33,823 nt of DNA, taken from Syntrophaceae bacterium. GTDB taxonomy: Bacteria > Desulfobacterota > Syntrophia > Syntrophales > Smithellaceae. The notes under the pieces are model-generated. The model worked only from the letters and a program-made list of their open reading frames with translations. It made no database searches and was not told the origin of the DNA. A program made the translations under genes and the position numbers. The DNA lies in the NCBI GenBank assembly GCA_016928765.1, contig JAFGKC010000058.1, forward strand, positions 1 to 33,823, read 5' to 3'. This document shows, one piece after another, positions 2,432 to 8,108 of the stretch; the first letter of the stretch is position 1; every line of letters begins with the position of its first letter.

Positions 2432-2497
2432 GATAAACTGGTTTACGAGCTATACGATTTAAAGCTTGAAGAAATCGCCATCGTGGAAGGAAAATAA
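2432..2497 (+). pseudogene. C-terminal remnant of a restriction enzyme / N6-DNA methylase-type protein
   Basis: Frame reads DKLVYELYDLKLEEIAIVEGK* (2432-2497), matching the recurring C-terminal tail '..LVYELYGLTEEEI.IVEG.' of Type IIG/BREX-type DNA methylases. No preceding gene body present. Confidence 0.55.
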
Positions 2498-2500
2498 ACA

Positions 2501-2561
2501 TGTAGGGACTGTTCCCCGAACAGTCCGCAATTTAACGGCGCGTTTAGGGAAACGCGCCCTT
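2501..2561. repeat. REP/cloverleaf-like element, copy 1 (two tandem hairpins)
   Basis: TGTAGGG start; hairpin GGACTGTTC-CCC-GAACAGTCC (2506-2526) and hairpin GGCGCGTTT-AGGG-AAACGCGCC (2537-2558). Confidence 0.75.
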
Positions 2562-2588
2562 TAATAAGATGGTAATGCCGTTGTAATA

Positions 2589-2692
2589 TGTAGGGATTGA
2601 TCGCCCTGGCAGGAACTTCAGCGCATGCGGGATGCGTCGGGCAGGCTATGCAATCCGTAAACTAGCGGCGTGTTTGCGAAACACGCCCTACA
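2589..2692. repeat. REP/cloverleaf-like element, copy 2 with terminal inverted repeats
   Basis: TGTAGGG (2589-2595) ... CCCTACA (2686-2692); stem 1 GGATTG (2594-2599)/CAATCC (2651-2656) with an enlarged insert; stem 2 GGCGTGTTT-GCG-AAACACGCC (2667-2687). Confidence 0.75.
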
Positions 2693-3127: not shown

Positions 3128-3511
3128 ATGCCGAAATTTAGCGAACAGCAGGCAGAAGAAAAGCTAAACAGGGACGCCAAAGCGGTCACCGAATATGACC
3201 TTAAAAAGGTGGTCGATAAGCGTGAAGAAATTGAAGAAAAGTTTAAAAGCAACGGGTCCCTCGGGAGATTTGTCGCGGATTTGAAACTTTTATTTTCTAT
3301 CATACAGGATTACCTGAAAGGTGAATATAGAAAAGTACCATTTTGGACAATCGCCGCAATCGTCGCCGCGCTTCTTTACGTGTTAAATCCTTTTGACCTG
3401 ATACCGGATTTTATTCCCGGCGTTGGCTTTGTAGACGATGCTTTGATTATAGGGGCATGCCTGGCATTGATAGAGAAGGACTTGCAAATCTACAAAGATT
3501 GGAAGAATTAA
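3128..3511 (+). CDS. YkvA family / DUF1232 protein
   Basis: VPFWTIAAIVAALLYVLNPFDLIPDFIPGVGFVDDALIIGACL is the DUF1232 signature (NP.DLIPDFIP..G..DD). ATG at 3128 with upstream GGAGGT preferred to the GTG at 3098. Confidence 0.9.
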   Translation: MPKFSEQQAEEKLNRDAKAVTEYDLKKVVDKREEIEEKFKSNGSLGRFVADLKLLFSIIQDYLKGEYRKVPFWTIAAIVAALLYVLNPFDLIPDFIPGVGFVDDALIIGACLALIEKDLQIYKDWKN

Positions 3512-5631: not shown

Positions 5632-6054
5632 TTACTTCTGAGAAGGAGAAGCGGGCACAGCCGGAGTTGCAGGAATTACTTCTTTAGCTTTGCCCTTGGC
5701 TTTGTCTTCTGCACCTTTTGCCTTATCTTTAGCTTTGTCTTCTACGCCTTTAACTTTGTCTTTTGCTTTATCATCCGCGCCCTTAACTTTATCTTTAGCT
5801 TTGTCTGCCTTATTTTTGGCGTCGTCTTCTACACCTTTAACTTTATCTTTAGCCTTATCCTCCGCGCCTTTAAGATGTCCTTTCGCTTTACCCTGAGCCT
5901 TGCCTTTTTCCACATTGGCTTTATCCTTAGCCGTCTGTACAGCTTCTTTTGCTACAGTAGATGCAGGTTCAGCGGGACCAGTTTTATCCGCGGCAATTAC
6001 AACGGTGGAAAACGCAAATACTAAAGAGACAACAAACAACACTAAACGCTTCAT
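5632..6054 (-). CDS. Secreted LEA-like, Lys/Ala/Asp-rich 11-mer repeat protein
   Basis: Signal peptide MKRLVLFVVSLVFAFSTVVIAADK; repeats GAEDKAKDKVK / GVEDDAKNKADKAKDKVK / GADDKAKDKVK / GVEDKAKDKAK / GAEDKAKGKAK. AGAAAGGAGGG RBS on the minus strand. Confidence 0.8.
   Translation of the reverse strand: MKRLVLFVVSLVFAFSTVVIAADKTGPAEPASTVAKEAVQTAKDKANVEKGKAQGKAKGHLKGAEDKAKDKVKGVEDDAKNKADKAKDKVKGADDKAKDKVKGVEDKAKDKAKGAEDKAKGKAKEVIPATPAVPASPSQK
5683..5868 (-). repeat. Coding tandem repeats (33-nt units, one 54-nt unit)
   Basis: Encodes the five hendecad/18-mer units of the LEA-like protein. Confidence 0.8.
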
Positions 6055-6154: not shown

Positions 6155-6343
6155 CTAAATTAATGTTTAATAATACCTGATAGATATATTATGTCCCTTC
6201 TTTATTTTGATCAAAATAACTGGCTTTTTATCAGCAAATAAGAAGAAAAAAGGAACGATTCTATTAAACTGCAAGGCGAAAGGATAAAGAGATTGCCCTG
6301 CAGGAATTCCGTTGCATGAAAAAGTTATGCCCTTGAGAATTCT

Positions 6344-6372
6344 GGATTCCCCGGTCTCGCCGGGGAATGACA
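6344..6372. repeat. Palindromic intergenic repeat, copy A (29 nt)
   Basis: GGATTCCCCGGTCTCGCCGGGGAATGACA, identical to 7920-7948. Confidence 0.8.
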
Positions 6373-6582
6373 CAAGGGAGAGATGGATTTCTGTTGTTTG
6401 CTTCTGCGTATGCCGGATGCACAGGAATAAAAAAGGAAGGGAAGGATTCCCGCTAGGATTGTTCAGGAATTACAGAGGAGGGAATAGCTTTTTTCTCTAA
6501 TATTGACATTTATGACGCATTGTTATTGTTAATGGCTTAATAACTGAGACGAATTATTTATTATATGTCGAGAAAAGCATAA

Positions 6583-7901: not shown

Positions 7902-7919
7902 AAAACCGCGGGAAATCTT

Positions 7920-7948
7920 GGATTCCCCGGTCTCGCCGGGGAATGACA
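7920..7948. repeat. Palindromic intergenic repeat, copy B (29 nt)
   Basis: Exact match to 6344-6372, located 19 nt after the thioesterase stop codon. Confidence 0.8.
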
Positions 7949-8108
7949 AAATTAAAATATCAAAAAACTTGCAAAATATTTCTGAATGCATAAAATTACC
8001 AGTATTAATGATTTTGTATTTTTGATAATAACATTGCTAAATAAAGCGCAGTTATTTAAAAAATAAATCACACTGTTTATTAATGAGACAGAAGGAGAAG
8101 TTGTTATT

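What the first reader, a model, noticed from the sequence alone, without database searches (positions are those of the whole stretch)
2501..2692. Two-copy cloverleaf-like element with compensatory stem changes
Unit 1 (2501-2561) and unit 2 (2589-2692) share TGTAGGG + stem 1 + CYGYAA + stem 2 + CGCCCT. Stem 1 differs as GGACTG/CAGTCC versus GGATTG/CAATCC, and stem 2 as GGCGCGTTT/AAACGCGCC versus GGCGTGTTT/AAACACGCC, i.e. in both cases both arms change so pairing is kept. Unit 2 has terminal inverted repeats TGTAGGG...CCCTACA, so it can fold as a multi-branched cloverleaf. Unit 2 also carries an enlarged stem-1 insert with an internal hairpin (CGCAT-gcggg-ATGCG). This looks like a REPIN/MITE-type mobile element or a structured RNA under selection for pairing.
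Basis: partly seen in the sequence, partly recalled or inferred. Interest (0 to 1): 0.68.

Follow-up and report, generated by a model that had tools for sequence, protein, structure and literature searches.

The report
GTAG REP/REPIN hairpin repeat (RAYT-type)
The two hairpin units are ordinary REP (REPIN/BIME-type) repeats, tiny non-coding DNA hairpins very likely spread by a single-strand-acting RAYT transposase; the enzyme gene is found embedded in the same repeats in a sister species but was not detected in this genome assembly.

Summary
The window comes from a Syntrophaceae/Smithellaceae MAG (Desulfobacterota). The repeat unit is a 26-nt REP: TGTAG plus a 9-bp perfect stem and a 3-nt loop. 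It comes in two stem types: A (GGACTGTTC or GGATTGATC) and B (GGCGCGTTY). Unit 1 is A>..<B. Unit 2 is the same, but its A loop was replaced by about 43 nt of another palindromic repeat. A covariance model finds 15 copies in this genome and hits in 36 of 51 family genomes. In 125 copies GTAG is kept in 115, and stems covary strongly. Close inverted neighbours are always one A and one B (28 head-in and 24 head-out pairs). A RAYT gene with HUH and catalytic Tyr lies inside these same REPs in the sister species G002. The six RAYTs flanked by these REPs form one clade (97/97), and the sister RAYT clade carries a different GTAG hairpin. The window's own assembly has no detectable RAYT, and the orthologous site has a single B REP instead. 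G·T and A·C mismatches are equal, so there is no sign of RNA-level selection. New family of a known kind (GTAG REPs and BIMEs).

The parts
2501..2526 (+). REP type A, intact (TGTAGGGACTGTTCCCCGAACAGTCC)
   Evidence: sequence; R1 model E 1.0e-6 in whole genome; fold
2537..2563 (-). REP type B of unit 1, GTAG tag decayed (..CCCTTTA on + strand)
   Evidence: R1 model E 3.8e-5
2501..2563 (.). Unit 1: head-in A/B pair (REPIN / BIME-type, GTAG tags outside), 10-nt spacer; the same unit is present in sister genome G002:C22 with B tag intact
2589..2654 (+). REP type A of unit 2 (TGTAGGGATTGATC...CAATCC) with an enlarged loop
   Evidence: compare intact TGTAGGGATTGATCGCCTGATCAATCC on own contig C166
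2602..2644 (.). Nested second palindromic repeat inserted in the A loop (GCCCTGGCAGGAACTTCAGCGCATGCGGGATGCGTCGGGCAG); homologous element stands elsewhere in genus genomes G003, G004 and G006
   Evidence: local alignment score 42 vs shuffle maximum 28 in 1000
2667..2692 (-). REP type B of unit 2, intact (TGTAGGGCGTGTTTCGCAAACACGCC on - strand)
   Evidence: R1 model E 5.1e-6
2564..2588 (.). Spacer between the two A/B pairs (head-out side), similar to the spacer in the own-genome array on contig C166
   Evidence: visual comparison; alignment of query 21-129 to C166
2432..2498 (+). Short fragment ending in an in-frame stop just upstream of unit 1; repeated elsewhere in genus genomes; unit 1 begins directly after its stop

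Best explanation
These are two BIME/REPIN-type elements, each made of two different GTAG-tagged REP hairpins (A and B) in head-in orientation. SHOWN: they belong to a dispersed intergenic family in this genome and in most sampled genomes of the family; A and B always alternate in close inverted pairs; and a RAYT gene clade is embedded in exactly these repeats in six other genomes. INFERRED from the E. coli and Stenotrophomonas/Marinomonas TnpAREP work (PMC8266576): the RAYT binds the folded single strand (GTAG + hairpin), cleaves next to it and rejoins, so A/B pairs are excised or copied in trans into intergenic sites, typically just downstream of stop codons. Both stem arms change together because only a pairing stem is a substrate and because copying spreads whole stem variants. 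In the window's genome no RAYT was found; the copies are therefore most likely non-autonomous, and inherited (unit 1 is shared with the sister species) rather than newly inserted. Unit 2 was then disrupted by a second palindromic repeat landing in its A loop.
For: 15 copies in own genome at E<=1e-3; 125 copies in 48 sampled loci with GTAG in 115; 96.9% of stem cells paired vs 76.4% shuffled, covariation score 0.547 vs 0.188, slid controls <=0.11; 28 head-in and 24 head-out close pairs, all A+B, no AA or BB; RAYT of G002 over NCBIfam cut-off (NF047646, 101 vs 80 bits), matches E. coli TnpAREP 4ER8 at 3.6e-9 with HUH at H69-L-H71 and Y130 aligned to chain residue Y115; REPs within 33-400 bp on both sides of this RAYT in 5 of 6 loci, one side only in the sixth, which lies at a contig end; 0 of the other 24 RAYT loci scanned have them, and the six are one clade, 97/97; the sister RAYT clade has its own GTAG hairpin TGTAGTGCGGG..; genomes with the cognate RAYT hold more REPs, median 16.5 vs 3, P=0.0016, not corrected for phylogeny; own REPs mostly lie outside the main ORFs, several within tens of bases of a stop codon.
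Against: No RAYT in the window's own assembly and none of the cognate clade in 30 of 36 REP-bearing genomes, several >=95% complete. No precise empty site or fresh insertion was caught, so mobility itself is not shown here. Copy numbers are low (about 15) compared with classic REP-rich genomes.
Confidence: 0.93

Rival explanations
1. Structured RNA: the hairpins are kept because they fold in a transcript (sRNA, mRNA 3' stabiliser or riboswitch-like).
For: Strong pairing and real covariation; several own copies sit just after stop codons, where REPs in other species can act on mRNA 3' ends.
Against: G·T and A·C mismatches equally frequent on the tagged strand (10 vs 11), whereas RNA selection should favour G·U; the GTAG tag is unpaired yet among the best conserved parts; no Rfam match; presence and number differ widely between relatives (0 to 115 copies).
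Confidence: 0.03
2. TIR-type MITE moved by a DDE transposase, with TGTAGGG..CCCTACA as terminal inverted repeats.
For: Unit 2 ends in TGTAGGG/CCCTACA; head-in pairs are common.
Against: Single REPs and head-out pairs are also common, so the pair is not a unit with fixed ends; no target duplication seen by eye at the unit 2 or C166 copies; the repeats flank a Y1 (HUH) transposase clade specifically.
Confidence: 0.03
3. Dead relics only: the repeats were spread by a RAYT in an ancestor and are now inert in this species. (A refinement of the main explanation, differing only in current activity; its probability overlaps with that of the main explanation.)
For: No RAYT in own assembly; own RAYT-locus ortholog holds a single B REP; unit 1 shared with the sister species and unit 2 truncated there; B of unit 1 has lost its tag.
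Against: Own assembly is only 86% complete and in 222 contigs, and contigs may break at repeats; many copies are still perfect palindromes.
Confidence: 0.45

Closest known systems
GTAG-tagged REP superfamily (Di Nocera et al. 2013, PMC3733652)
   Same: GTAG tag in 92% of copies, 9-bp stem, 3-nt loop, intergenic, HH (head-in) and TT (head-out) dimers, heterodimers with complementary stem variants, RAYT gene flanked by the repeats.
   Different: Found in Smithellaceae/Syntrophaceae MAGs; that paper's main text does not mention any Syntroph- taxon. Close inverted pairs are strictly A+B here. Whether the sequence equals one of its 24 families could not be checked (its Figure 1 is not held).
E. coli BIMEs (REP and inverted REP of classes y, z) with TnpAREP
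   Same: Alternating inverted A and B REPs, sometimes in arrays (A B A B A B A in L206); RAYT homologous to TnpAREP 4ER8.
   Different: Perfect short stem without the bulge that E. coli TnpAREP requires (PMC8266576).
Group 3 REPtrons (S. maltophilia Sm, Marinomonas Mb; Corneloup et al. 2021, PMC8266576)
   Same: Short perfect palindrome after GTAG, small loop, RAYT with matching REPs beside it.
   Different: Formal RAYT group assignment was not made here.
REPINs (REP doublets of Pseudomonas, from own knowledge)
   Same: Two head-in REPs with tags outside as the basic doublet.
   Different: Two different stem types per doublet; low copy number.

Membership tests
GTAG REP / REPIN-BIME | Short palindrome preceded by a conserved GTAG (GTRG) tetranucleotide | tested here: met
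   115 of 125 copies GTAG; stems 96.9% paired
GTAG REP / REPIN-BIME | Dispersed, multi-copy, intergenic | tested here: met
   15 copies on 8 contigs of own genome, outside the main genes; 36 of 51 family genomes
GTAG REP / REPIN-BIME | Inverted pairs or arrays with tags outside | tested here: met
   28 head-in, 24 head-out, few tandem
GTAG REP / REPIN-BIME | RAYT gene flanked by the same repeats | tested here: met
   Six RAYTs in related genomes, one clade
GTAG REP / REPIN-BIME | Cognate RAYT in the same genome (frequent, not strictly defining: REPs are non-autonomous and persist as orphans) | tested here: inconclusive
   None found in the own assembly, but it is only 86% complete and in 222 contigs
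GTAG REP / REPIN-BIME | Single-strand cleavage at GTAG hairpin by RAYT | not testable with these tools
   Needs protein and oligonucleotides
RAYT (TnpAREP) family, for the G002 gene | NCBIfam REP-associated tyrosine transposase score, HUH motif and catalytic Tyr | tested here: met
   101 bits vs cut-off 80; H69-L-H71, Y130 aligned to 4ER8 Y115
Structured RNA (any Rfam family) | Match to a curated family | tested here: not met
   0 matches
TIR MITE (DDE) | Fixed TIR ends with target-site duplication | tested here: inconclusive
   No duplication seen by eye at the unit 2 and C166 copies; orthologous loci too diverged for exact empty sites

The most novel reading that the evidence does not exclude
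In this family the transposition substrate is obligatorily a heterodimer: the RAYT needs one A and one B hairpin together (as left and right ends), so A and B are the two distinguishable ends of one element rather than variants of one REP, and the strict A/B alternation is a readout of that.
Probability: 0.2. Interest if true: 0.45.

Novelty: new member of a known kind. Interest (0 to 1): 0.27.

Why it matters
It shows that hairpin pairs with compensatory stem changes in an uncultured syntroph genome are REP mobile DNA and not a new RNA, and supplies a RAYT/REP pairing with a sister clade that has a different hairpin: a natural set for testing how RAYTs and REPs co-evolve and whether left and right ends are distinguished.

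Tried and rejected
Structured RNA (no G·U bias, no Rfam match). Full cloverleaf via terminal repeats (bases shared with the hairpins). RAYT in own genome by PF01797, NF047646 and direct protein search: none. Large Y1 proteins (231-322 aa) in G001 and G006 as the responsible enzyme: not in the cognate clade and not flanked by these REPs. Precise empty sites at own C64 versus G001, G003, G004: REP pair absent there, but flanks too diverged to give exact junctions. Whether CGTC-tagged repeats cluster by any RAYT: no enrichment (0.7 vs 1.1 per 10 kb). A first pass at the Pfam scan of the window's small genes failed on a mistyped reference and was not repeated.

Full report
Observation. Unit 1 folds as two clean 9-bp hairpins (z -6.2 against 200 shuffles). 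Unit 2 folds less well (z -2.35) because its first hairpin is interrupted. The proposed cloverleaf is largely an overlap effect: the GG of TGTAGGG opens hairpin 1 and the CC of CCCTACA closes hairpin 2, so only TGTAG/CTACA is free to pair, and the computed structure does not pair them.

What the unit is. The window is contig C113 of a 2.1-Mb, 222-contig assembly (86% complete) whose nearest named relatives by its aconitase are Syntrophaceae MAGs (UBA4810, 93% identity), with Smithella and Smithellaceae below them. A DNA search of the own genome returned further copies, and these show that the repeating unit is the single hairpin: TGTAG, then a 9-bp stem, a 3-nt loop, and the closing arm. There are two stem types. 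Type A is GGACTGTTC/GAACAGTCC or GGATTGATC/GATCAATCC. Type B is GGCGCGTTY or GGCGTGTTY with its complement. Both window units are A> ..10-12 nt.. <B.

Family and covariation. A covariance model of twelve copies finds 15 copies in the own genome and 25 in one sister species, G002, and hits in 36 of 51 genomes of the family, from 1 to 115 copies. On 125 copies, GTAG is kept in 115 and stems pair in 96.9% of cells against 76.4% in shuffles; the covariation score is 0.547 against 0.188, and sliding the partner by 1-3 bases drops it to 0.11 or less. That alignment was fitted to the model, so part of the excess is built in, but the 12 hand-collected copies show the same. Stem mismatches are 10 G·T and 11 A·C: there is no sign of the G·U tolerance that RNA selection leaves.

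Architecture. Neighbouring REPs less than 60 bp apart are head-in in 28 cases and head-out in 24, and all 52 pairs are one A and one B; only a few tandem or unclassified pairs occur. One locus is a perfect A B A B A B A array (L206). This is BIME organisation with two REP classes. In the own genome the copies lie outside the main genes, several within tens of bases of a stop codon; the overlaps seen are with short frames on the other strand of the neighbouring gene.

Mobiliser. No Y1 transposase or RAYT was detected in the own assembly. In sister genome G002 a 157-aa RAYT gene (L096:1423-1896, minus strand) has REPs of this family on both sides. It passes the curated NCBIfam RAYT cut-off and matches E. 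coli TnpAREP (4ER8), with the HUH pair and the catalytic tyrosine (Y130 aligned to Y115) in place (that Y115 is the catalytic residue is my own knowledge). Thirty RAYT loci of the family were scanned: only six have these REPs, on both sides in five of them (the sixth, L212, lies at a contig end). Those six proteins form one clade at 97/97 support and are separated by a wide identity gap (63-100% against at most 42% for any other long match). The sister RAYT clade carries another GTAG hairpin, TGTAGTGCGGGGTTTTAACCCCGC and variants. This enzyme-repeat matching is the strongest argument that this RAYT clade spreads these REPs. Genomes with the cognate RAYT hold more copies (median 16.5 against 3, P=0.0016, uncorrected for relatedness), but 30 of 36 REP-bearing genomes lack it, so orphan copies are common.

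The own genome's RAYT site. Aligning the G002 RAYT locus to own contig C79 gives continuous flanks, with the ~550-bp RAYT stretch (itself between direct B REPs) replaced by a single B REP. Either the gene was lost, for example by recombination between the direct B copies, or a REP stood there before. G003 and G004 have no REP downstream of the same flanking gene. I cannot tell the direction.

The window locus in relatives. G002:C22 holds unit 1 at 93% identity over 242 bp, with the B tag intact (CCCTACA) where the window has lost it, and the beginning of unit 2. So the pair is inherited, not new. The enlarged loop of unit 2 aligns to a separate palindromic repeat that stands in other contexts in G004, G006 and G003 (score 42 against a shuffle maximum of 28). 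Another A REP, next to the G002 RAYT, has a palindrome inserted in its loop too. Hairpin loops may thus be favoured landing places; this is a lead, not a result.

Compared with what is known. GTAG REPs in head-head and tail-tail dimers, including heterodimers, with RAYT genes flanked by the repeats, are described by Di Nocera et al. (PMC3733652). Corneloup et al. (PMC8266576) show that TnpAREP acts on single-stranded GTAG hairpins, and that one group of enzymes uses short perfect palindromes like these. The present family meets the testable defining features. It is a new family, in a lineage which that paper's text does not mention, of a known kind. Its mildly unusual feature is the strict A/B pairing.

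Limits. Mobility itself was not shown; copy counts rest on fragmented MAGs; the model was built from own-genome copies and may miss divergent ones; pair statistics mix related copies.

Noticed in passing
window 6338-6375, 7914-7951, 4068 (-), 1600-1630, 1553: CGTC/TGTC-tagged palindromes (TGTCATTCCCCGGCGAGACCGGGGAATCC; TGTCATTGCGAACGCAGTGAAGCAATC), resembling the CGTC REP superfamily, for which no transposase is known (PMC3733652). They are not enriched beside the RAYTs scanned.
   Followed up: partly
window 2602-2644; L167:2020-2074 and 3148-3202; L110:166-220; L135; L175: Second palindromic repeat (about 45-55 nt, folds with a three-way junction, e.g. CTGCTTGCCCTGCCGGGAATCCCAGCGCATGCAGGGTATGCTCGGGCAG) found nested in the loop of REP A of unit 2 and beside CATTGCGA..GCAATC repeats in G004.
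   Followed up: partly
L210:1266-1413, L211:2003-2029, L215, L217, L219: Sister RAYT clade flanked by its own GTAG hairpins (TGTAGTGCGGGGTTTTAACCCCGC and relatives), a ready second RAYT/REP pair in the same bacterial family.
   Followed up: partly
window 2432-2498: Fragment ending in ..LVYELYDLKLEEIAIVEGK* repeated in G001, G002, G003, G004 (about 79-91% identity): looks like the C-terminal end of a DNA methylase or restriction-type gene (from memory, untested) left as a remnant just upstream of the REPs.
   Followed up: no
G000:C36:9019-9384 and G000:C79:475-841: Two own contigs carry similar flanks (GCGCGTTT hairpin next to a TTTAAAAAAGGGGG palindrome, then a shared coding flank); either a duplication or strain mixture in the assembly.
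   Followed up: no
window 5632-6054 (-): Low-complexity repeat protein gene with 33-bp repeats.
   Followed up: no
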